NCBI GenBank assembly: GCA_017469685.1
Contig: JAFUFW010000027.1
Coordinates: 1 to 32,093 of the forward strand
DNA: 32,093 nt
Reading direction: 5' to 3'
Source: Bacteroidaceae bacterium
Lineage (GTDB): Bacteria > Bacteroidota > Bacteroidia > Bacteroidales > Bacteroidaceae
Under the pieces are notes generated by a model. The model saw only the letters and a list, made by a program, of their open reading frames with translations, was not told the origin of the DNA and did no database searches. This document shows positions 1-31,067 of this stretch, piece after piece. The position numbers were made by a program, and so were the translations under genes. The first letter of the stretch is position 1, and every line of letters begins with the position of its first letter.

Positions 1-2
1 CA

Positions 3-248
3 CGACGTGTAAGCAGCAAGCAGCGCAAGTTGTCCCTTGACGAGTACCGGGCAACCTTCCTGCAGGTGCCGAAGGTTGTCAACCGCCGTCCCGTGTTCGT
101 CAGTGAGGAAGTCCGCCAGAAACTTGACCTCATTGTCCTCCGTCTGTCAGACACACGCAGGATGAGTGTCACAGGACTGCTGGAGAATATCTGCCGACAC
201 CACATCGCCATGTACGAGGACGACATTAAGCAATGGCGTAAATTGTGA
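3..248 (+). CDS. DUF3408 conjugation/mobilisation protein, C-terminal part (partial)
   Basis: The reading frame is open from the window edge to a TGA at 246-248, so the start lies outside. The visible 81 residues have the features of the C-terminal DUF3408 domain of Bacteroidota conjugative transposons: a basic lead-in, then LDEY, a PVFVS segment, a predicted helix EEVRQKLDLIVLRL, an MSVTG turn and an ending in DIKQWRKL. DUF3408 proteins are encoded beside the ParA-like and Mob genes of CTnDOT-type elements and are thought to act in DNA processing or partition during transfer (family knowledge). An oriT-like hairpin follows about 85 bp later, but no relaxase gene follows it. This suggests that the element ends or is broken here. 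A TTG at 30 is not needed as a start because the frame continues upstream. Confidence 0.8.
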   Translation, partial: RRVSSKQRKLSLDEYRATFLQVPKVVNRRPVFVSEEVRQKLDLIVLRLSDTRRMSVTGLLENICRHHIAMYEDDIKQWRKL

Positions 249-559
249 GCGATAAGACCGAACTGGAAAGCAAAGGGAATGGTTTTGACGCTGAAAGCGG
301 CATTTGGTCGAGGAACAATGTTCCGAGAGCAAGCAAGGTTGTGTTTTCGTAACCCGAAAACTGCCTTGCTCCACACTCCGAAGGGTCGCGTGGAGGGGAA
401 ATTGCTCCCGATGGTCGTTGATATCAGAGTTCAGTTACTATAACGAGAATACGCAGATTATTATGAATAACTTTATTGCAATATTAAAAGGATGAGACCA
501 AATTCAGGGTAAATTTCTCGTTCTTTTTATGTGTATTTACGTTGATTTATATGAAAACA
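249..559. other. Non-coding stretch: element remnant with oriT-like hairpin, then AT-rich junction
   Basis: No convincing gene is present. From 249 to about 420 the sequence has the moderate GC of the conjugative element and contains the hairpin at 332-370. From about 420 it becomes strongly AT-rich, like the island downstream. The change near 415-430 is my best guess for a junction between the element remnant and inserted cargo. An open frame from 304 runs straight through the hairpin and looks spurious. Confidence 0.5.
332..370. repeat. Two-tier inverted repeat, candidate oriT / relaxase site
   Basis: The outer arms AGCAAGG (332-338) and CCTTGCT (364-370) and the inner arms GTTTTCG (343-349) and CGAAAAC (355-361) are both perfect. 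A small asymmetric bulge separates the tiers and the apical loop is the 5 nt TAACC. The hairpin lies just after a DUF3408 gene, which in Bacteroidota conjugative elements is a usual place for the transfer origin and the mob gene promoter region. The position and structure support an oriT. The nick site cannot be read from sequence. Confidence 0.5.
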
Positions 560-591
560 TTTGTTTTCTTGCATTATTTTTATTACATTTG
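560..591 (+). promoter_or_regulatory. Bacteroidota-type promoter for the XRE gene/island
   Basis: TTTG at 560-563 and TACATTTG at 584-591 are separated by 20 bp, which matches the Bacteroidota consensus (-33 TTTG, -7 TAnnTTTG). Transcription would start near 595, about 33 nt before the ATG at 628. This is the only full-consensus promoter I found upstream of the five-gene block. Confidence 0.65.
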
Positions 592-627
592 CACACGAAA
601 CGCCTATAAATAATAGATTTCTACTAA

Positions 628-846
628 ATGAAAGAATATACGCATTACAATCGTATCAAGTCAGTCTTAGCGGAGAAGAACAAGACAGGAACATGGCTCT
701 CAGAACAGATGGGCCGTAATCTTGGAACTGTTTCAAGATGGATGACCAATAAGGTTCAGCCATCGGTGGAACAATTATACGATATTGCTAGACATCTTGA
801 TGTGGACGTAAGGGAGTTGTTGGTGGCATCAAAAGCTAAAGAATAA
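628..846 (+). CDS. XRE/Cro-C1 family helix-turn-helix regulator
   Basis: A 72-residue protein that is essentially one Cro/C1-type DNA-binding domain. Residues 8-14 form the first helix, the recognition region lies around GTVSRWMTNKVQPS (33-46), and the final helix includes DIARHLDVDVRELL. It has no extra effector domain. Small regulators of this kind often sit at the head of restriction-modification or other defence operons in Bacteroidota and autoregulate them (family knowledge). The ATG is preceded by a consensus promoter at 560-591, and the next gene starts 14 bp after its stop, so the two are probably co-transcribed. It is likely to control the FtsK-like gene downstream. Base composition is AT-rich like the rest of the island. 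Confidence 0.85.
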   Translation: MKEYTHYNRIKSVLAEKNKTGTWLSEQMGRNLGTVSRWMTNKVQPSVEQLYDIARHLDVDVRELLVASKAKE

Positions 847-860
847 AAAAGAGTGATATT

Positions 861-3515
861 ATGGGCTGGAGATATAGAAAAAGAATAAAGATTCTTCCTG
901 GTATTCATATAAATATCAGCAAGAGCGGTATCAGTACCAATGTAGGCGTAAAGGGAGCGAGTGTAACTTTTGGGCCTAAAGGAACCTATGTTAATACAGG
1001 GCTTCCTGGTACAGGATTATATCGAAGGGATAGACTTTCCGTAAGCGACAAAAAGCATGAATATAGTAATGGAACTGAATATGAAAGAGATGCATTCAGC
1101 AATAACAGCCTTAGCATAGAAGAATATAGCGAGGATACATCCTTTTTGTCATATAATCCATTACACTACATTTTCTATTTCTTTTCATTGCTATTCCCAA
1201 TAGCAGCATTTGCATGGTATATTAACGGTTTAGATATGCTTTATAGCTGTCTTATCAATGCTGGTTTTCAGTTAATACTTTGCTTTGCCATCATTACCAA
1301 CATGTCACTCAAAGAAGAACCTTCTGCGTATAGGATAAAGTTGATTGAAAAGGCATCTTTAAACAGCATTAAAGGAGAAATTGTAGGTCATGTAGTTAGA
1401 TGTTCTCTTTATATCGTAATTATTGTCCTCAATTTGTTCCCTCTATTATCAATGAGTGGTTCTTTTGTAAGTATCTTCTGTGGATATGAAAAATCATGGG
1501 ATGGAGGTATCCTTGTTGTCTTGATAACATTTTTAATTGTGATTTGCTGGATAAAAGCTTTCATCAAAGAGAAGAAATTCATATTATCATTGGATAATGC
1601 TGTTTTGTTGAAACAAGGAATAAATGAAGACAAGCAGGACAATAGTAGTCCAAATAATAATATTGAAAAACAAACTACAAAATCAGAATCAAATACCCTT
1701 AGTAATGACGGAAAATTATCTTCGTCAAATTTTGACCATCCTCTTACAAGAGATATTTTAGGAAATCTAATAAATAAAGAAAACGGAAAACCTTTATCTT
1801 CTCCTTCTTCACGAGAATTAGGAGTAATGATGGATAACCAGACGGAATCAAGTAATGAGTCATCATCTCCTATTGTTTCAAGACAAGAAGTAAGAGACAT
1901 TCTGGGTGCTCTTGTCAACAATGATGATACCAGTGCATCTGCCACAGCTATAAAACAAGATGAAGGAAGTGTTTCACACCCCCGTGAAGAACTTATTGAG
2001 CCATATGACCCCAAATTAGACTTGGAGAGCTATCACTATCCAACACTTGAACTTCTTAAGAAATACGATGACAGAGGCAAACCATACATTGATATGGAGG
2101 AGCAACAAGCCAACAAAAATCGTATAGTAGATACTTTGCGTAGCTTCGGCATTGAGATTTCTTCAATCAAAGCCACTGTTGGCCCAAGAATTACACTCTA
2201 TGAGATTACACTGGCTCCAGGTATAAACGCCTCCAAATTAAGAGGATTAGAAGATGATCTTGCTTTAGCGTTGTCTTCTCATAATGTTCAGTTTTTAATT
2301 CCCGTACCAGGTAAAGGGACTATTGGTATAGAGGTTCTCAATCCTCGCCCCTCTATTGTCTCTATGGAAAGTATTCTTTGCACAAAGGTTTTCCGGGAAA
2401 CTACGATGGAATTACCTTGTGCTATTGGTAAGACTATTACTAATGAGACCTTTATGTTCGACTTGGCGAAAGCTCCACATATTCTTATAGCAGGCTCGAC
2501 AGGTCAAGGGAAGTCGGTAACGCTAAATGCCCTTATTGCGTCCTTACTTTACAAGAAGCATCCGGCAGAAATGAAACTTGTACTCATGGATCCCTATGGT
2601 GTAGGGTTTGGGAGTTACTCAGAGATTGCTAATCATTTCTTAGCCGCTCTGCCAGACGAATCGGCTATCATTTCAAATAGTAGTAAAGCTGTTAGTACAT
2701 TGAATGCTTTATGCAAGGAAATGGTAGTCCGTTACGACTTACTGAAAATGGCTTATGCACGGAATGTCAAGGACTATAACCATAAATTTATTGAGCGTCA
2801 GCTGAGTCCGGCTGTTGGTCATAAATTCATGCCCTACATAGTCGTCATAATTGATGAATATGGGGATTTTATCGAAGAGAGAGGACAGGAGTTCGAAACT
2901 CCAATTGTACAATTGGCGCAATATGCTCGTGCTGTTGGTATTCACCTAGTAATATCAACAAAACGTCCTACCAATGATGTTATTACAGGAGCTATCAAAG
3001 CAAACTTCCCAACACGTATCGCTTTTAGATTGCCTGAGCGCATTGACTCACAGGTTATTCTTGATTGTGATGGTGCAGAGGATTTGTTAGGAAATGGCGA
3101 CATGTTGTATAGGGCTGGTAAAAGCATCGATTGCTTACGTATTCAAGGGGCTTTCGTGGATACACCTGAATTAGAGCGTATCATTGAGTTTATTTCCTGT
3201 CAGGATAGTTATTCAATTCCCTTTGAATTGCCTGATCCCTATTATGATGAAGATGATTATTATGTCCATGATGTTGATATGCAACATCTTGACCCACTAT
3301 TTGAAGATGCTGCCCGTTTGATAGTCAGAGAACAAAGTGGTTCATCAAGCTTAATCCAACGTAAGTTTGCTATTGGCTACAATCGTGCAGGCAGGTTGAT
3401 GGACCAATTAGAGAAAGCAGGCTTTGTTGGTGCTGCCCATGGGAGCAAACCACGTGAAGTTCTCATTATGGACGAAACGAGTCTTGAAAATCTTCTGTCA
3501 CAATGGAGAGATTAA
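861..3515 (+). CDS. Chimeric DUF4236 - membrane - FtsK/SpoIIIE-type DNA translocase
   Basis: An 884-residue protein with an unusual domain order. Residues 1-55 match a DUF4236 domain (starts MGWRYRKRIKI, followed by repeated glycine turns GISTNVG, GPKGTYVNTGLPGTG). Four hydrophobic helices follow at about 100-121, 126-147, 175-197 and 215-236. A low-complexity Ser/Asn-rich linker covers about 250-375. The FtsK motor starts near 400: alpha/beta region at 415-500, Walker A GSTGQGKS at 545-552, Walker B VVIIDEYGDF at 661-670, and the segment KANFPTRIAFR near 713-723. A complete winged-helix gamma domain lies at about 808-872. The motor resembles the cell-division FtsK of Bacteroidales, but the usual N-terminus is replaced by DUF4236 and DPKKVE-type residues are changed to DPYGVG. 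It probably pumps double-stranded DNA at the membrane. Its role is unknown; defence or element transfer is my inference. Confidence 0.85.
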   Translation: MGWRYRKRIKILPGIHINISKSGISTNVGVKGASVTFGPKGTYVNTGLPGTGLYRRDRLSVSDKKHEYSNGTEYERDAFSNNSLSIEEYSEDTSFLSYNPLHYIFYFFSLLFPIAAFAWYINGLDMLYSCLINAGFQLILCFAIITNMSLKEEPSAYRIKLIEKASLNSIKGEIVGHVVRCSLYIVIIVLNLFPLLSMSGSFVSIFCGYEKSWDGGILVVLITFLIVICWIKAFIKEKKFILSLDNAVLLKQGINEDKQDNSSPNNNIEKQTTKSESNTLSNDGKLSSSNFDHPLTRDILGNLINKENGKPLSSPSSRELGVMMDNQTESSNESSSPIVSRQEVRDILGALVNNDDTSASATAIKQDEGSVSHPREELIEPYDPKLDLESYHYPTLELLKKYDDRGKPYIDMEEQQANKNRIVDTLRSFGIEISSIKATVGPRITLYEITLAPGINASKLRGLEDDLALALSSHNVQFLIPVPGKGTIGIEVLNPRPSIVSMESILCTKVFRETTMELPCAIGKTITNETFMFDLAKAPHILIAGSTGQGKSVTLNALIASLLYKKHPAEMKLVLMDPYGVGFGSYSEIANHFLAALPDESAIISNSSKAVSTLNALCKEMVVRYDLLKMAYARNVKDYNHKFIERQLSPAVGHKFMPYIVVIIDEYGDFIEERGQEFETPIVQLAQYARAVGIHLVISTKRPTNDVITGAIKANFPTRIAFRLPERIDSQVILDCDGAEDLLGNGDMLYRAGKSIDCLRIQGAFVDTPELERIIEFISCQDSYSIPFELPDPYYDEDDYYVHDVDMQHLDPLFEDAARLIVREQSGSSSLIQRKFAIGYNRAGRLMDQLEKAGFVGAAHGSKPREVLIMDETSLENLLSQWRD

Positions 3516-3606
3516 TTATAATGACCATCTTATAATTATAACGAGGTCCTCTTTGTAGCCCCCGAAACACTATCACACTAGAAGAGTACGAAAAACTAGC
3601 AAAATT

Positions 3607-4749
3607 ATGACACATAGGAAAGGAACATATATAGCTTTAATTGATTATGATTCTTGGGGAGATCGAATTACAATAGGTTTTCCTATGCATTTTGAGAACG
3701 AGGAAGCTTATGTTTTAGAAACGGACGAAAATGGCTGTTGGACAACATTTGGGGCTCCGATCAATAATTTATGCACATTAGACGATGAGAACGTCTTCGA
3801 ATGCTTGAAACAGAGCACTCCGTTTCTTTCTCAAAACAATACAGGGAATAATTTTAGACTTATTCCATTAAACTTGAATTATGGTCAATCATTCTGTTCT
3901 ATTTATAGGCCGTCATTTACGGATAAATATTTAAAATACTTTTCCATACCATTTCAAGAAGGAAGGCCTGCAAGAGATTTTTATGAGGACTTGCCAATTT
4001 CTGTCCTCAATGAGTATTCTAATTTGTTGAAGCAAATAGAGATTATATTTGATGATTTGGATACCATCTTTAAAGTTGTCTCGCCTCATAAAAACCAATA
4101 TAGTGTTTATGGGCATGCTATAAGGAATGTTATTATGTTGGCATGTACAGAGTTGGATTCAAGGATGCAACATATTTTGATCAATAATGCAGTAAAGCCA
4201 AATGGTAAATATTTCCAGATGACGGATTATTACAAACTTAAGGAAGTCTTAAGACTGGACGAATACAGTTTGTCATTTTATAGATATGGCGATTTGGAAG
4301 TTTACTCTCCATTTAATGAATGGGAGCAAAACAATGAACTTATCTGGTATAAAGCATACAACAAAGTTAAGCATAACCGCGAAGATAAATTCACGGATGC
4401 AAACCTATACAATGCTATAAATGGCGTAATTGCTTTATGTATCATAGCGATAGCTCAATATGGATATCGGAATGATTTGTGGAATGAGAGAATAGGAAAG
4501 GTCATAAGAGTAGAAAAGGAACCCTTATGGGATTTGGAGGATTTTTATTTGGCGCGCCCCGATAAACGGGAGTATATTCATTACTCTTTCCCAAATTATA
4601 CGAGACATACAAGTAAAAGGGGCATTTTAGCTAAAGAAGTTTTAACTTTGGTAAATAGGCCTAATAGCAAGAAAGAGGATATTATAAGTAAACTTGATGA
4701 ACTCAAAGAAATGATTGAGAATGATAGTCCTAACAAGATAGGCGAATAA
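3607..4749 (+). CDS. Unknown protein with HEPN-like helical region
   Basis: A 380-residue protein that I do not recognise as a named family. Residues 1-70 look like a beta-rich domain (IALIDYDSWGDRITIGF). Residues 135-160 form a helix (LLKQIEIIFDDLDTIF). Residues 165-195 contain YGHAIRNVIMLACTELDSR, and residues 247-285 contain WYKAYNKVKHNRED followed by a hydrophobic helix. The KVKHNR motif after an all-helical segment resembles the HEPN fold, in which an R-x-H pair often forms an RNase site. That is an analogy only. There is no signal peptide or membrane helix. It lies 91 bp after the FtsK-like gene and 24 bp before the next gene. No consensus promoter was seen in the 91-bp gap, so it may belong to the same operon. 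Confidence 0.7.
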   Translation: MTHRKGTYIALIDYDSWGDRITIGFPMHFENEEAYVLETDENGCWTTFGAPINNLCTLDDENVFECLKQSTPFLSQNNTGNNFRLIPLNLNYGQSFCSIYRPSFTDKYLKYFSIPFQEGRPARDFYEDLPISVLNEYSNLLKQIEIIFDDLDTIFKVVSPHKNQYSVYGHAIRNVIMLACTELDSRMQHILINNAVKPNGKYFQMTDYYKLKEVLRLDEYSLSFYRYGDLEVYSPFNEWEQNNELIWYKAYNKVKHNREDKFTDANLYNAINGVIALCIIAIAQYGYRNDLWNERIGKVIRVEKEPLWDLEDFYLARPDKREYIHYSFPNYTRHTSKRGILAKEVLTLVNRPNSKKEDIISKLDELKEMIENDSPNKIGE

Positions 4750-4773
4750 ATTGGAACTATAAATGACGAAGTA

Positions 4774-5073
4774 ATGAAAGATCATAGAATAGAGCAATGT
4801 CTAGGTGACATTCAGAAATACGAAAAGTGGGGAAACCTGCTTGCGGGGCAGAGTTGGATTCATTTATTCAATTCTAATGCTCCTGTGAGTGCATTAGCAA
4901 TTCACAACGGATTGGAATGTATTAAGGCAAAAATGAAACTGAGTGTACTTCAAGACAATCAGCATACTGATAAAGAAAAAGAAAAGCGACTAAAGCAAAT
5001 AGACCTTGAAACGCATCAAATGGAAGAAATGATGAAGCATGACCTTGAATATAGAGGTCTGCTGATGCCGTAA
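4774..5073 (+). CDS. Small hypothetical protein
   Basis: A 99-residue protein with no recognised family. It is predicted mostly helical, with a charged stretch DKEKEKRLKQIDLETHQMEEMM (about 68-89) that could form a short coiled coil. It has no signal peptide or membrane segment. It lies 24 bp after the HEPN-like gene and 16 bp before the DUF4062 gene, all on the same strand, so it is probably part of that operon and might be a small partner or adaptor protein. The reading frame is clean and AT-rich like its neighbours, but the assignment as a real gene rests on context. Confidence 0.6.
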   Translation: MKDHRIEQCLGDIQKYEKWGNLLAGQSWIHLFNSNAPVSALAIHNGLECIKAKMKLSVLQDNQHTDKEKEKRLKQIDLETHQMEEMMKHDLEYRGLLMP

Positions 5074-5089
5074 TCAAAATGTATGAAAT

Positions 5090-5650
5090 ATGGATAGAAA
5101 GATAAAGATAATGGTTGGCTCAACTGTATATGGTTTTGAGAACGAACTGTATCAGATTGTAGCATTGCTACAGACTCTTGGATATGAGGTTCTGAATTCG
5201 CATGTCGGGACAATTAAGGTGAATCCCAAACTGTCGAATTTGGAGAACTGTCTGAATGCTGTAGATGAGTGTGACTTGTTCCTTGGTATTATCAGACCTT
5301 ATTACGGGACTGGGAATATCGGTGAGAAGAATATTACGTTTGAAGAAATCAAAAGGGCTATAGAACTGAAAAAGCCGTATTGGTTCTTGGTGCACAGGGA
5401 TGTGGTGTTTGCAAGAAAGTTGTTCACGAAGATAAAGGATACAGAAAAGATAGAAGTGAGAAAGAACAACTTTTTTGACCCTCGCTGTATAGACGTGTAT
5501 AACTACGTAATAAAGAATCACATTCCCATTACGCTAAGAAATGGAAATTGGGCGCAGGAGTTTTATCGTCTTGATGAGATGAGCATCTACATTAAGACTC
5601 AGTTTGAGGATAGAACATTCATAGAAAACATATTGGCACAGGAGGATTAA
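5090..5650 (+). CDS. DUF4062 (TIR-like fold) domain protein
   Basis: A 186-residue protein whose first 100 residues look like DUF4062. A first beta-strand with a serine turn (KIKIMVGSTVYGF) is followed by a long helix (ELYQIVALLQTLGY), a strand/acidic segment CDLFLGIIRPYYGTG (61-75) and ITFEEIKRAIELKKP (81-95). DUF4062 is structurally related to TIR and nucleotide-sugar-hydrolase folds and occurs in signalling and immunity proteins (family knowledge). The FEE residues near 83-85 could be the acidic site, but I cannot prove catalysis. The C-terminal part (105-186) is unassigned. It ends 3 nt before the AlbA_2 gene, so the two are probably translationally coupled. A DUF4062/AlbA_2 pair is an arrangement I recognise from other accessory regions. 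Confidence 0.8.
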   Translation: MDRKIKIMVGSTVYGFENELYQIVALLQTLGYEVLNSHVGTIKVNPKLSNLENCLNAVDECDLFLGIIRPYYGTGNIGEKNITFEEIKRAIELKKPYWFLVHRDVVFARKLFTKIKDTEKIEVRKNNFFDPRCIDVYNYVIKNHIPITLRNGNWAQEFYRLDEMSIYIKTQFEDRTFIENILAQED

Positions 5651-5653
5651 GTT

Positions 5654-7096
5654 ATGGATGGAAGATTTATAATAGACAACTTGCTGAGACAAGAAAAGAA
5701 TGAGCGTTTGGATTTCTTGCCTAAAGCAACGGAAGAGATGCTTGCCAAGATGATTACGGCAATGCTTAATAATCGTGGTGGCGATATAGTTATCGGAGTA
5801 GATGATAACAAACGCGTTATAGGGGTTTCTGAGGGGGATATAAGTGGATTGTCTAAGGCTCTGGCTAACAGGATACGCCCATCGGCTCCTATTGATATTC
5901 ATTCTATTGATTATAATGGAGCAAATATAATGCTTATAAGCGTTTGGGAAGGTGCGCAGAAGCCATATCATTGCGATGGAAAGATATATCAGAAGTTAGG
6001 GGATGAAATCGTCGTGGCCAGTCCTGAGAGCATTGGCAACATGCTGCTAGAGCGTAAAAAGTCTGATTTCAACTGGGAACGGATGCCTGTCCTTGGTGCG
6101 GAGATGGACGATTTGGATATGGATGAGGTCAGAAATACGATGAAGGAGTATATTCGCATGAACGGCAGCATCATACATGACGAGGAGTTATTCCTAATCA
6201 AGAATGGACTTTTAAAGGATGGTAATTTGACTAATGCCTGTATAGCTCTATATGCTAAAAACCCAGCACAATTCGTTGCCCAGACTAGAATCAAGTTGTC
6301 GGTATTCTCTTCGGACTCTAATGCTGATTTAGTGGAGGCACGACTATTTGAAGGTAATATCTTTAAGAATATCAGTGCCATATTCCAGTTTATAGATATG
6401 ACATATTCTAAAAGTGTCAAGATTGACGGTCTGTATAGAGAGGAAAGATGGAATTACCCACAAGTAGCAGTAAGAGAGGGTGTTATGAACGCTATCGTAC
6501 ACAGAGATTACAACTCTGTTAATGGCTTTATGCATATTCTCCTATATCCTAATCGCTTAGAAATAGCCAACTATGGAATAATACCTTCAATGGAATCTGT
6601 TATCGTAAAAGGAGGTGAAGGTGTGTCAATGCTTCGTAATCCAGATATTGCTCATCAGTGCTATTATAGAAAACTTATAGAGATGATGGGGACAGGCATA
6701 CCTCGAATGATACAAGACAGCAAGGAACACGGCTTTGACATTCCAATATTTGAGATTAAAGACCAAATTGTTAAGGTGTCTTTCCCCAATATCCATTACC
6801 TGCGTACGGAAAAAACACTTCAAGGTGGCACTAACTTGAAGTCCCATTTTGAGGGAGTAATTGAGGGAGTAATTGAGGGAGTTAGTAAAGACATTAAAAA
6901 GAAACTGGCATCTATTCTTTGTGTTCTGAACAATCAGCCAGGGCTTAGGACGACAATGCTCAGTAGTAAGACGGATATTCCCGTGAAAAGCGTTGAGCGA
7001 TATGTAAAGCGTTTGAAGGATGCGGGACTTATCAAGTATTTAGGTTCAAGTAAATCTGGTGGTTACTTTCTGTCCGGCTCTGCAGTGAGGGAGTAA
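5654..7096 (+). CDS. AlbA_2 / GHKL-like ATPase-fold putative regulator with winged helix
   Basis: A 480-residue protein of the Schlafen/AlbA_2 type often annotated as ATP-binding protein or RecG-like transcriptional regulator. AlbA_2 covers about 10-120 (ITAMLNNRGGDIVIGVDD at 34-51). The ATPase-fold region covers about 260-360, with REGVMNAIVHRDY (274-286), IANYG (304-308) and GTGIPRM (346-352). A linker with three EGV repeats lies at 400-410. A winged helix covers about 415-472 (SVERYVKRLKDAGLI). Such proteins bind nucleic acid and may sense or regulate. The gene starts 3 nt after the DUF4062 stop. A 12-bp DNA repeat encodes the EGV linker, and further copies overlap the stop codon. The gene is full length for the family. 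Confidence 0.85.
   Translation: MDGRFIIDNLLRQEKNERLDFLPKATEEMLAKMITAMLNNRGGDIVIGVDDNKRVIGVSEGDISGLSKALANRIRPSAPIDIHSIDYNGANIMLISVWEGAQKPYHCDGKIYQKLGDEIVVASPESIGNMLLERKKSDFNWERMPVLGAEMDDLDMDEVRNTMKEYIRMNGSIIHDEELFLIKNGLLKDGNLTNACIALYAKNPAQFVAQTRIKLSVFSSDSNADLVEARLFEGNIFKNISAIFQFIDMTYSKSVKIDGLYREERWNYPQVAVREGVMNAIVHRDYNSVNGFMHILLYPNRLEIANYGIIPSMESVIVKGGEGVSMLRNPDIAHQCYYRKLIEMMGTGIPRMIQDSKEHGFDIPIFEIKDQIVKVSFPNIHYLRTEKTLQGGTNLKSHFEGVIEGVIEGVSKDIKKKLASILCVLNNQPGLRTTMLSSKTDIPVKSVERYVKRLKDAGLIKYLGSSKSGGYFLSGSAVRE
6851..6886 (+). repeat. Three tandem 12-bp repeats inside the AlbA_2 gene
   Basis: GAGGGAGTAATT starts at 6851 and 6863, and a diverged third copy starts at 6875. Being a multiple of three, the unit keeps frame and encodes repeated EGVI. 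Copy changes would alter the length of the linker between the ATPase-fold region and the winged helix without a frameshift. Related copies occur at 7087-7108. Confidence 0.85.
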
Positions 7097-7108
7097 TGAG
7101 GGAGTAAA
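7087..7108 (+). repeat. Two further GAGGGAGTAA copies over the AlbA_2 stop codon
   Basis: GAGGGAGTAAT (7087-7097) and GAGGGAGTAAA (7098-7108) lie directly over and after the stop, in a different register: here the TAA of the unit is the stop codon. They are direct repeats of the array at 6851-6886, about 215-235 bp away. Recombination between the two sites would remove the winged helix and end the protein early. Confidence 0.8.
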
Positions 7109-30352: not shown

Positions 30353-30383
30353 TTTGCGAACGCGGGATTTTATTGTACCTTTG
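30353..30383 (+). promoter_or_regulatory. Promoter of the higB-higA operon
   Basis: TTTG (30353-30356) and TACCTTTG (30376-30383) are separated by 19 bp. The higB ATG is at 30391, so the leader is only about 4 nt. Confidence 0.75.
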
Positions 30384-30390
30384 CACCCAA

Positions 30391-30708
30391 ATGATAGTTA
30401 CATTCGAGCAGACATACCTACAGGAACTTTACACAGAGGGCAAGGCGAGCGATAAGAAACACCGCTTTCAGCCTCAGGTTGTCAGCAAGTACGTCAAGGT
30501 AGTCAACCTGATGAAGCAGCAAGAGAATGTTCTGGGACTAACCAAGTACGGTTCCCTGCACTACGAGAAACTGCACGGCGACAAGGCGGGAACATCGTCC
30601 GTACGCGTTAACGACCAGTATCGCATTGAGTTCACAGAAGGCATGGAAGCCGGCAAGCAGATAGCCACGATTTGTAACATCACCGAATTGTCAAACCATT
30701 ATAATTAG
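30391..30708 (+). CDS. higB: HigB-like RelE-fold toxin
   Basis: A 105-residue protein of the RelE/HigB superfamily, a ribosome-dependent mRNA endonuclease. It begins MIVTFEQTYLQELY, has a basic middle (KKHRFQPQVVSKYVKVVNLM), LHYEKLHGDKAGTSSVRVNDQYRI, and the end CNITELSNHYN, all typical of Bacteroidota HigB. The ATG at 30391 is chosen because the -7 box ends at 30383; an in-frame TTG at 30373 would be inside the promoter. The antitoxin gene follows after 14 bp. Confidence 0.9.
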   Translation: MIVTFEQTYLQELYTEGKASDKKHRFQPQVVSKYVKVVNLMKQQENVLGLTKYGSLHYEKLHGDKAGTSSVRVNDQYRIEFTEGMEAGKQIATICNITELSNHYN

Positions 30709-30722
30709 AAGGAGGACGAGAT

Positions 30723-31067
30723 ATGATGACACTTGAAGGAATAAATCCGCATATGATAGCAAACAACCTGAAGCCCTATCAACCCACCCATCCCGGCGAG
30801 GTACTGAAGGACGAACTGGAATACCGTGGCATTTCGCAGCGCGGACTTGCCAAGAAAATAGGCATATCCTATTCCGCCTTCAACGAAATGCTGAATGGCA
30901 AGCGATCACTCAGTCCCGAACTGGCCATGATGATGGAGGCAGCCCTCGGTGTGGATGCCGCCCCTCTGTTGGCTATGCAGAACGAATATGACATACTGAT
31001 GGCCGAGCGCGACGATTCGTTTATGAAGAAACTCAAACAGATTCGTCGCATTGCCGCCATTTTCTAA
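30723..31067 (+). CDS. higA: HigA-like antitoxin, XRE family
   Basis: A 114-residue antitoxin with a Cro/C1 helix-turn-helix at about 35-90: HPGEVLKDELEYRG, SQRGLAKKIGIS, FNEMLNGKRSLSPELAMM, typical of the HigA/VapI group. The C-terminal helix (ERDDSFMKKLKQIRRIA) probably contacts the toxin. It lies 14 bp after higB, the toxin-first order characteristic of hig systems. A clear Shine-Dalgarno AGGAGG at 30711-30716 precedes the ATG, unusual for Bacteroidota. It probably represses its own promoter at 30353-30383. Confidence 0.92.
   Translation: MMTLEGINPHMIANNLKPYQPTHPGEVLKDELEYRGISQRGLAKKIGISYSAFNEMLNGKRSLSPELAMMMEAALGVDAAPLLAMQNEYDILMAERDDSFMKKLKQIRRIAAIF

What the first reader, a model, noticed from the sequence alone, without database searches (positions are those of the whole stretch)
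861..3515. DUF4236-four-helix-FtsK chimera under an XRE regulator
Seen: a DUF4236 module, four membrane helices and a linker are fused to a complete FtsK motor with Walker motifs and the winged gamma domain, in an AT-rich island behind a small XRE gene. Known: DUF4236 is normally a small stand-alone domain; chromosomal FtsK has a different N-terminus. Inference: an FtsK paralogue has been recruited for another task, such as moving or clearing foreign DNA at the membrane, or helping transfer of the neighbouring conjugative element. I do not know a described system with this architecture.
Basis: partly seen in the sequence, partly recalled or inferred. Interest (0 to 1): 0.72.

Follow-up and report, generated by a model that had tools for sequence, protein, structure and literature searches.

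The report
FtsK copy in a defence-type operon
A gut-type bacterium carries, next to a regulator often found in front of anti-virus genes, a re-purposed copy of its chromosome-moving motor whose fuel-burning site is altered while its DNA-recognition tip still matches that of normal motors, which suggests a switchable decoy or brake acting on the cell's own chromosome machinery.

Summary
Window 861-3515 encodes DUF4236 + four hydrophobic segments + FtsK alpha, motor and gamma, 14 bp behind an XRE gene, in a 35-40% G+C island. A normal FtsK lies elsewhere in the genome; 14 of 14 other fusion genomes checked also hold a second, full-size FtsK.

Unexpected: (1) 15 full-length fusions form one motor clade against 34 chromosomal FtsKs (100/100), with an altered ATP site: phosphosensor Gln replaced in 14 of 15 (Lys in the window), DPK Lys in 15, Walker-B Glu in 6 (kept in the window). 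(2) The gamma domain does the opposite: it is as similar to chromosomal gammas as these are to each other, its tree mixes fusions with chromosomal FtsKs, and its KOPS/XerD surface is mostly kept. Some relatives, prophage ones included, carry DUF4236+gamma without the motor. (3) XRE homologues precede restriction, phosphorothioation-type or abortive-infection genes in 20 of 27 loci.

Best reading: a conditionally expressed, defence-type FtsK mimic that engages KOPS, XerD or the host FtsK ring without normal pumping. Accessory status, altered site and gamma behaviour are shown; the action is inferred. Six literature searches found no description.

The parts
560..591 (+). Bacteroidales-type promoter match TTTG-N20-TACATTTG, ahead of the XRE gene
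   Evidence: 5 matches in the window against 0.21 expected; the consensus itself is recalled. The TAnnTTTG part is kept in L079 and L069, not in L067 or L089.
628..846 (+). XRE/Cro-type regulator (72 aa) whose homologues lie in front of defence-type genes
   Evidence: HTH_26 E 9e-8; 20 of 27 downstream genes R-M/PT-type/Abi; XRE found within 800 bp upstream of 11 of 17 fusion genes, 8 intact and 3 damaged.
861..3515 (+). DUF4236-4TM-FtsK(alpha, motor, gamma) fusion, 884 aa
   Evidence: Pfam; 16 further fusions in genome contigs, one of them split and one cut by a contig end.
867..1028 (+). DUF4236 module
   Evidence: PF14020, E 1.7e-22; genome search places it at 867-1028.
1167..1565 (+). stretch with the four hydrophobic segments (residues 103-235); no FtsK_4TM match
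   Evidence: hydropathy; no PF13491 hit, whereas relative L068 (E 2.2e-12) and the own chromosomal FtsK (E 3.1e-16) have one.
2040..2336 (+). FtsK alpha domain
   Evidence: PF17854, residues 394-492.
2379..2969 (+). FtsK motor: Walker A Lys551, Walker B Asp665-Glu666 and arginine-finger Arg690 kept; DPK Lys -> Tyr579; phosphosensor Gln -> Lys701; DNA-grip Arg702 and Lys713 kept
   Evidence: residue roles from passages of PMC9410874 and PMC7321959.
3288..3467 (+). FtsK gamma (KOPS/XerD-binding) domain, surface residues kept
   Evidence: PF09397; residue tables.
3607..5073 (+). two genes of unknown family (380 aa and 99 aa) in the island
   Evidence: ORFs; no match over a curated cut-off in Pfam, none in NCBIfam, one weak PADLOC match (E 0.021).
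5090..7096 (+). DUF4062 gene and AlbA_2/RecG-C-like gene, end of the low-G+C island
   Evidence: the AlbA_2 gene also matches a PADLOC pAgo model (E 2.3e-15). 4786-5949 is 92% identical in DNA to the island of Segatella albensis DSM 11370 (L067), while the fusion genes are 68-69% identical.

Best explanation
An accessory, XRE-controlled two-gene unit of defence-operon type. The protein descends from an FtsK that gained an N-terminal DUF4236. Its ring and gamma tip still address what host FtsK addresses (KOPS sites, XerD at dif, perhaps the host FtsK ring itself), but the ATP site has been altered, so that it should grip DNA, or join rings, without normal fast pumping. When the XRE switch lets it be made, I propose that it acts as a membrane-anchored brake or decoy at the chromosome-segregation step, stopping division or dimer resolution of a cell under attack (abortive response). 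Shown here: accessory status, common motor origin, altered active site (under purifying selection in the XRE-linked branch), gamma kept and repeatedly exchanged with chromosomal FtsKs, regulator of a family that precedes defence-type genes. Inferred: expression on attack, effect on ATP hydrolysis, block of host FtsK/XerCD, protection.
For: Accessory: normal FtsK in the own genome and a second strong FtsK in 14 of 14 other fusion genomes; fusions in 4 of 301 family genomes sampled, own included. One motor clade, 15 against 34, support 100/100. Altered site: Gln701 lost in 14 of 15, Lys579 in 15 of 15, Glu666 in 6 of 15, each invariant in 34 of 34 chromosomal FtsKs; phosphosensor Gln631, catalytic Glu596 and grip Arg632 as named in PMC9410874 and PMC7321959. 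Motor dN/dS 0.09-0.37 in nine pairs, eight of them from the XRE-linked branch (0.09-0.26). Gamma: fusion-to-chromosome identity 0.723 against 0.737 among chromosomal copies, whereas the second motor half is 0.554 against 0.814 (14 fusions, 13 chromosomal copies); gamma tree mixed, one fusion clade rejected (p-AU 0.00019), starred fusion/own-chromosome pairs L072, L076, L100; own-genome gamma identity 0.80 against 0.707 shuffled, 0 of 10,000, own copy best in 7 of 14. Contact positions mostly kept in 16 gamma copies of 14 motor-less DUF4236 proteins: R1289 13, N1296 12, R1297 14, R/K1300 13, D/E1303 14 of 16. Six viral contigs have DUF4236-gamma; of the five upstream genes scanned, two are HTH and two Peptidase_S24 (repressor-like), one has no match. 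XRE: 20 of 27 downstream genes R-M/PT-type/Abi, against at most 5 of 28 upstream.
Against: In the window Walker A, Walker-B Glu and arginine-finger Arg690 are intact, so slow or altered hydrolysis remains possible; L069 keeps the Gln. Six of 17 fusions have no XRE within 800 bp. For the Walker-B-less branch purifying selection rests on one near-identical pair (L070/L072, ratio about 0.37). The window's gamma does not match its own genome best: 71%, rank 10 of 14; its best match is another genome's FtsK at 96%. Own-genome identity also exceeds shuffling for alpha and both motor halves, by less, so part of it may be common descent; gamma exchange could be passive gene conversion. Of the 20 'defence' genes four carry only a PAPS-reductase domain, and several are near-repeats (L298/L299/L304; L300/L301/L318), so they are not 20 independent cases; the upstream control uses the nearest ORF of 90 aa or more, some of which may not be genes. 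PADLOC gave only FtsK/HerA-like model matches for the protein. Six of 15 fusions have no hydrophobic N-part segment, so membrane anchoring is not general. Gamma outside FtsK is rare: 14 of 151 family genomes list two or more gamma matches.
Confidence: 0.42

Rival explanations
1. An active defence translocase: a membrane-bound FtsK-like pump that intercepts or moves invading phage or plasmid DNA.
For: Defence-type XRE; Walker A kept in 15 of 15, and Walker-B Glu kept in the nine XRE-linked fusions of the alignment, with the loop II Arg kept in all but L067; the motor region matches the SspH and mad8 defence models of PADLOC (E 6.4e-47 and 2.3e-29).
Against: Sensor Gln and DPK Lys replaced; no nuclease domain in the protein; gamma stays like that of chromosomal FtsKs, which points to self DNA as its partner.
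Confidence: 0.22
2. A Xer/dif guard or exploiter: the gamma tip binds XerD to block or trigger recombination at dif, for or against elements that integrate there.
For: The Arg equivalent to E. coli R1289, which contacts XerD (PMC5052618 passages), is kept in 13 of 15 fusions and 13 of 16 gamma copies of motor-less DUF4236 proteins; six viral contigs carry DUF4236-gamma.
Against: No dif site or Xer gene was examined; no DUF4236-FtsK gene was found among the 57 viral-contig loci, and no match covering 80% of the protein in the phage and plasmid collections.
Confidence: 0.12
3. A spare FtsK: a decaying or backup copy of chromosomal FtsK with an added N-terminal domain and no separate role.
For: In L070 and L072 the fusion lies directly behind the normal ftsK, in L100 about 3.5 kb from it; L068 has an FtsK_4TM; gamma is exchanged with ftsK.
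Against: A consistent set of altered catalytic positions in one clade; purifying selection in the XRE-linked branch; XRE cassette in different contexts.
Confidence: 0.12
4. A helper of a conjugative or integrative element's DNA transfer.
For: DUF3408 fragment at the contig end; low-G+C, mosaic island.
Against: No relaxase or coupling family among the seven ORFs of 1-7100 scanned (the rest of the window read by eye); no near-identical island in the plasmid collection; no shared transfer neighbour seen by eye in the other fusion loci.
Confidence: 0.05

Closest known systems
Chromosomal FtsK of Bacteroidales
   Same: alpha, motor and gamma domains in order; 63% motor identity and 71% gamma identity to the own genome's copy
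   Different: DUF4236 and another 4-TM stretch in place of FtsK_4TM (which the own chromosomal copy has); phosphosensor Gln and DPK Lys replaced; not in the ftsK-lolA-trxB context; second copy in the genome
HerA/FtsK capture systems, DndH clade 2 with FtsK-alpha (PMC10853773, passages)
   Same: an FtsK motor with alpha domain taken from the chromosome-segregation system and used in a defence-type context
   Different: no REase in the protein and no Orc/Cdc6 partner among the seven ORFs scanned; keeps FtsK gamma; the sensor-1 Gln, which that paper uses to place DndH in the HerA/FtsK clade, is lost; carries DUF4236 and hydrophobic segments
SspH and mads_8 (PADLOC models)
   Same: motor region matches (E 6.4e-47 and 2.3e-29)
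   Different: only the ATPase part aligns; no other gene of those systems among the seven ORFs scanned
DUF4236-FtsK_gamma proteins of Bacteroidales prophages (L178, L184-186, L188, L189) and DUF4236-gamma-AAA+ proteins
   Same: DUF4236 N-terminus and the same gamma surface; prophage genes lie directly behind a small gene that is HTH or Peptidase_S24 in four of five scanned
   Different: no FtsK motor; C-terminus with weak TPR matches below cut-off (L051), or an AAA + lid domain (L052, L133 by Pfam; others by BLAST), the latter often beside an ion-channel gene

Membership tests
FtsK (chromosomal DNA translocase) | FtsK_alpha + FtsK_SpoIIIE + FtsK_gamma in order | tested here: met
   all over the curated cut-offs
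FtsK (chromosomal DNA translocase) | N-terminal FtsK_4TM | tested here: not met
   No PF13491 match in the window protein; met by three of three chromosomal FtsKs scanned and by fusion L068
FtsK (chromosomal DNA translocase) | Phosphosensor Gln, DPK Lys, Walker-B Glu (34 of 34 chromosomal copies) | tested here: not met
   Window has Lys701 and Tyr579 (not met), Glu666 (met)
FtsK (chromosomal DNA translocase) | NCBIfam FtsK equivalog cut-off (PRK10263, 1566 bits) | tested here: inconclusive
   Window 293.9 bits, but three chromosomal Bacteroidales FtsKs also fall far below it (342-365 bits), so the cut-off does not discriminate here
FtsK (chromosomal DNA translocase) | Only or housekeeping copy, ftsK-lolA-trxB context | tested here: not met
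   Second, complete copy at G000:C19; island context of the window. The context of the C19 copy was not examined; the ftsK-lolA-trxB order is as seen in L018, L054, L055
HerA/FtsK capture defence systems | Sensor-1 Gln of the HerA/FtsK clade | tested here: not met
   Lys701; feature taken from PMC10853773 passages
HerA/FtsK capture defence systems | Nuclease (REase) in the protein or operon | tested here: inconclusive
   No nuclease family in the fusion; an AlbA_2 gene 2 kb downstream, with a PADLOC pAgo-model match, is in the island and might be an effector
HerA/FtsK capture defence systems | Anti-invader activity | not testable with these tools
   Needs phage or plasmid challenge
XRE regulators of defence operons | Homologues mostly in front of R-M/PT-type/Abi genes | tested here: met
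   20 of 27 downstream genes against at most 5 of 28 upstream; regulation itself not tested
DUF4236 proteins | PF14020 at the N-terminus | tested here: met
   E 1.7e-22, residues 3-56

The most novel reading that the evidence does not exclude
DUF4236-gamma proteins are a previously undescribed class of conflict proteins that plug the host's own KOPS/XerD-reading FtsK tip onto interchangeable membrane and ATPase bodies. The DUF4236-FtsK branch is a pseudo-translocase that keeps its tip matched to resident FtsKs by recombination, so that, once derepressed, it can poison FtsK-driven chromosome segregation as an abortive defence.
Probability: 0.25. Interest if true: 0.88.

Novelty: new variant of a known kind. 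Interest (0 to 1): 0.66.

Why it matters
If true, bacteria (and some of their prophages) use the chromosome-segregation address system itself as a trigger or target in conflict, with a decoy built from the cell's own motor and kept tuned by recombination. It would give DUF4236, a domain with a single mention in one paper of the searched library, a biological setting, and it offers a clean test case of how an FtsK ring behaves when sensing and gripping are separated from hydrolysis.

Tried and rejected
Housekeeping FtsK: rejected (second, complete copy; second FtsK in 14 of 14 other fusion genomes). Pseudogene: rejected for the XRE-linked branch (open frame, dN/dS). Several independent DUF4236 captures of the FtsK motor: rejected (one clade), although the N-part and gamma are mosaic. 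Gamma matching strictly to the own genome: own copy is the best match in 7 of 14, not in the window, L067 or L079. Loss of DNA grip: not supported, Arg702 kept in 14 of 15 and Lys713 in all 14 rows of alignment A2; loop I charge is shifted (Arg727 where Bacteroidales FtsKs mostly have Met, Gln731 where they mostly have Arg). Carriage on plasmids or phages: no near-identical island in plasmids, no match covering 80% of the protein in either collection. The best plasmid hit, B. finegoldii 'plasmid 29', is ftsK-lolA-trxB. NCBIfam equivalog score as a membership test: dropped, since real FtsKs fail it too. Structure: not obtained, so no fold search was made. Literature: six searches, no description of DUF4236-FtsK seen in their listings; the single DUF4236 paper (listing only) is about Salmonella genotypes. 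Papers were seen as passages only: PMC9410874, PMC5052618, PMC7321959, PMC10853773, PMC12839542.

Rows dropped: L080 (split gene) and L081 (cut by contig end) are left out of the 15-fusion alignments; L070 (gap in gamma) is left out of the own-genome test, the region averages and the gamma tree. L079's own chromosomal FtsK is very divergent (possible binning error or recent transfer); it was kept in the own-genome test and the gamma tree, but left out of the chromosomal baseline. In one search one gamma row (L091) was overwritten by that of its neighbour gene; one search is the corrected count. The 80 loci are the best of 270 and the query held three FtsK fusions, so proportions there are not prevalences. 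The 29 foreign XRE loci examined are the best-scoring ones, one per genome; two (L302, L319) had no downstream gene within 500 bp and are outside the 27; L291 had no upstream gene and is outside the 28.
Full report
Observation. The 884-aa frame at 861-3515 has DUF4236, FtsK alpha, FtsK motor and FtsK gamma at curated significance, and four hydrophobic segments between DUF4236 and alpha. A 72-aa XRE gene ends 14 bp before it. A Bacteroidales-type promoter match lies at 560-591 (consensus recalled). The stretch 501-7100 is 35-40% G+C; 7101-32093 is 53%. The window is the whole contig C77 of a 94-contig genome, so the island's left border is not seen.

Is it the cell's FtsK? No. The genome has another FtsK on contig C19, with FtsK_4TM, alpha, motor and gamma. 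Each of 14 other fusion genomes tested has a second FtsK with a strong motor match (E 7e-59 to 7e-54) in a frame of 817-857 aa. In 301 genomes of the same family, 18 have DUF4236 at all and 4, the own one included, have it fused to FtsK.

Relatives. One scan of the genome collection (84,980 species) with seven DUF4236 N-termini gave 270 relatives, of which the best 80 were kept. A DUF4236 ORF was found in 79 of these loci. 16 are DUF4236-FtsK fusions, all from records named Prevotella, Segatella, Prevotellaceae, Bacteroidaceae or Bacteroidales, one of them an isolate (Segatella albensis DSM 11370). A further 14 carry FtsK gamma but no FtsK motor. Of these 14, three were checked by Pfam under their other locus names or directly: L052/L075 and L133 have AAA plus AAA_lid_6 ('CbxX-type' is recalled), and L051/L140 has weak TPR matches below cut-off. 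In viral contigs, 57 DUF4236 loci were found; 6 have gamma and none has the motor by BLAST. The gene directly upstream of these six: HTH by Pfam in L188 and L189, Peptidase_S24 in L184 and L185, no match in L178, and L186 not scanned.

Evolution of the parts. The motor tree puts 15 fusions on one side of a branch against 34 chromosomal FtsKs with full support, so the motor was most simply taken once; no outgroup was used. The N-part is variable: L068 has an FtsK_4TM behind DUF4236 (E 2.2e-12), either ancestral or re-acquired; the window, L066, L067 and L069 have other four-segment stretches; four have two segments; six have none. Neighbouring DNA is mosaic: window 4786-5949 is 92% identical to the S. 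albensis island, although the fusion genes themselves are 68-69% identical.

Active site. Columns invariant in the 34 chromosomal copies but changed in the fusions include the DPK Lys (15 of 15 changed), the phosphosensor Gln (14 of 15; L069 keeps it) and the Walker-B Glu (6 of 15). The residue roles come from passages of PMC9410874 (Glu596, Thr630/Gln631, Arg632, Arg620) and PMC7321959 (K657, R661, R632, K643), transferred through the alignment with numbering set on Walker A Lys472 (recalled) and borne out by Gln631/Arg632 and R661 falling on TQRP and DSR. In the window Walker A, Walker-B Glu, the arginine finger and the loop II contacts are intact, so hydrolysis is likely altered rather than proven dead. 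The six fusions without a detectable XRE are the same six that lost the Walker-B Glu. Motor dN/dS is 0.09-0.26 in eight pairs of the XRE-linked branch and about 0.37 in the one, nearly identical, pair of the other (L070/L072); some dS values are near saturation.

Gamma. Chromosomal gamma domains are 73.7% identical to one another on average; fusion gammas are 72.3% identical to chromosomal ones. For the second half of the motor the figures are 81.4% and 55.4% (14 fusions, 13 chromosomal copies). The gamma tree mixes fusions and chromosomal FtsKs (9 changes against a shuffled mean of 9.6), rejects a fusion clade (p-AU 0.00019), and pairs three fusions with their own chromosome's FtsK at starred support (75 columns, bootstrap not settled). 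Across 14 pairs, own-genome gamma identity is 0.80 against 0.707 after shuffling (0 of 10,000 shuffles as high) and the own copy is the best match in 7 of 14; alpha and both motor halves also exceed shuffling, by less. The window itself is an exception: own 71%, best 96% to the FtsK of L082's genome. The contact positions for XerD (R1289, PMC5052618 passages) and KOPS (N1296, R1300, E/D1303, recalled) are kept in nearly all fusions (13-14 of 15) and in 12-14 of 16 gamma copies of motor-less DUF4236 proteins, counting Lys at 1300 and Asp or Glu at 1303. FtsK gamma is otherwise mostly single-copy: 14 of 151 family genomes list two or more matches.

Regulator. Homologues of the XRE were sought in 151 family genomes (95 with a match). 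For the 29 best foreign loci, 27 had a gene within 500 bp downstream. Pfam of these cytosine or adenine methylases (7), HsdR/ResIII-type proteins (6), PAPS-reductase-domain proteins (4; DndC-like by inference), MutH-type (1), Cap4 (1) or AIPR (1); the rest are AlbA_2 (2), WYL (1), DUF1016 (1) and no family (3). Several are near-repeats of one another. Upstream neighbours serve as a rough control: at most 5 of 28 proteins match R-M/defence families (Vsr, N6_Mtase, Eco57I, TaqI_C, SIR2_2; several may be one protein), but some of these upstream ORFs may not be genes. The XRE is upstream of 11 of 17 fusions, intact in 8.

Interpretation. These results point to a defence-type unit whose effector is built to meet the host's own FtsK partners while its motor has drifted away from normal pumping. 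I therefore prefer a conditional brake or decoy at chromosome segregation over a pump for foreign DNA. The second remains possible, since FtsK-like ATPases are known in defence (PADLOC SspH and mads_8 matches; HerA/FtsK capture systems, PMC10853773; BREX-related capture, PMC12839542).

Novelty. The listings of the searches showed no description of DUF4236-FtsK or DUF4236-gamma proteins; most subscription papers and all bioRxiv preprints are outside the library. As an FtsK recruited to conflict it is a variant of a described theme; the retained gamma, exchanged with chromosomal FtsKs, on an altered motor, and the DUF4236-gamma modular family, are the new parts.

Noticed in passing
L020 9224-12651; L075 6066-9952; L109, L133, L136, L142, L145 (and L092, L096): DUF4236-[TerB-like]-[FtsK gamma]-AAA+ genes lie next to an Ion_trans channel gene of about 250 aa (Pfam for L020 and L136; others by eye). 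'TerB-like' is by eye only: the separate 174-aa gene of L020 had no Pfam match. Some loci (L022, L136, L142) also hold small genes resembling a His-Xaa-Ser cluster (recalled). It looks like an undescribed membrane system.
   Followed up: partly
L091 3974-5890: Protein with FtsK gamma (E 3e-8) in front of an RNase_T exonuclease domain, beside a DUF4236-gamma-AAA+ gene: gamma perhaps used as an address tag on a nuclease.
   Followed up: no
window 4786-5949: 92% identical to the island of Segatella albensis DSM 11370 (L067 15019-16180), far above the fusion's own similarity there: recent transfer of the DUF4062/AlbA_2 part.
   Followed up: partly
window residues 297-305 and 345-353 of the fusion (about 1749-1775 and 1893-1919): Repeated short motif RDILGxLxN in the otherwise variable linker, with a similar pair in L066; possible partner-binding peptide.
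   Followed up: no
L068 8001-10490: A fusion with a genuine FtsK_4TM behind DUF4236: an intermediate between FtsK and the window's form, or a re-acquisition.
   Followed up: partly
NZ_OY725931.1 (L018): Record called a B. finegoldii plasmid carries ftsK, lolA-like, trxB and glutamine synthetase genes, so it is probably a chromosomal contig.
   Followed up: no
window 30373-31067: Two small genes that look like a HigB-HigA toxin-antitoxin pair (recalled resemblance, no profile search), with a Bacteroidales-type promoter match at 30353-30383.
   Followed up: no
window 30-248: DUF3408 C-terminus cut by the contig end (E 5.8e-19): edge of a mobile element left of the island.
   Followed up: no
L291 675-1509 (G404:C8): The best-scoring XRE relative in the 151-genome search apart from the window's own (78% identical) is followed, with overlapping ends, by a 208-aa gene without a Pfam match: candidate new defence gene.
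   Followed up: no
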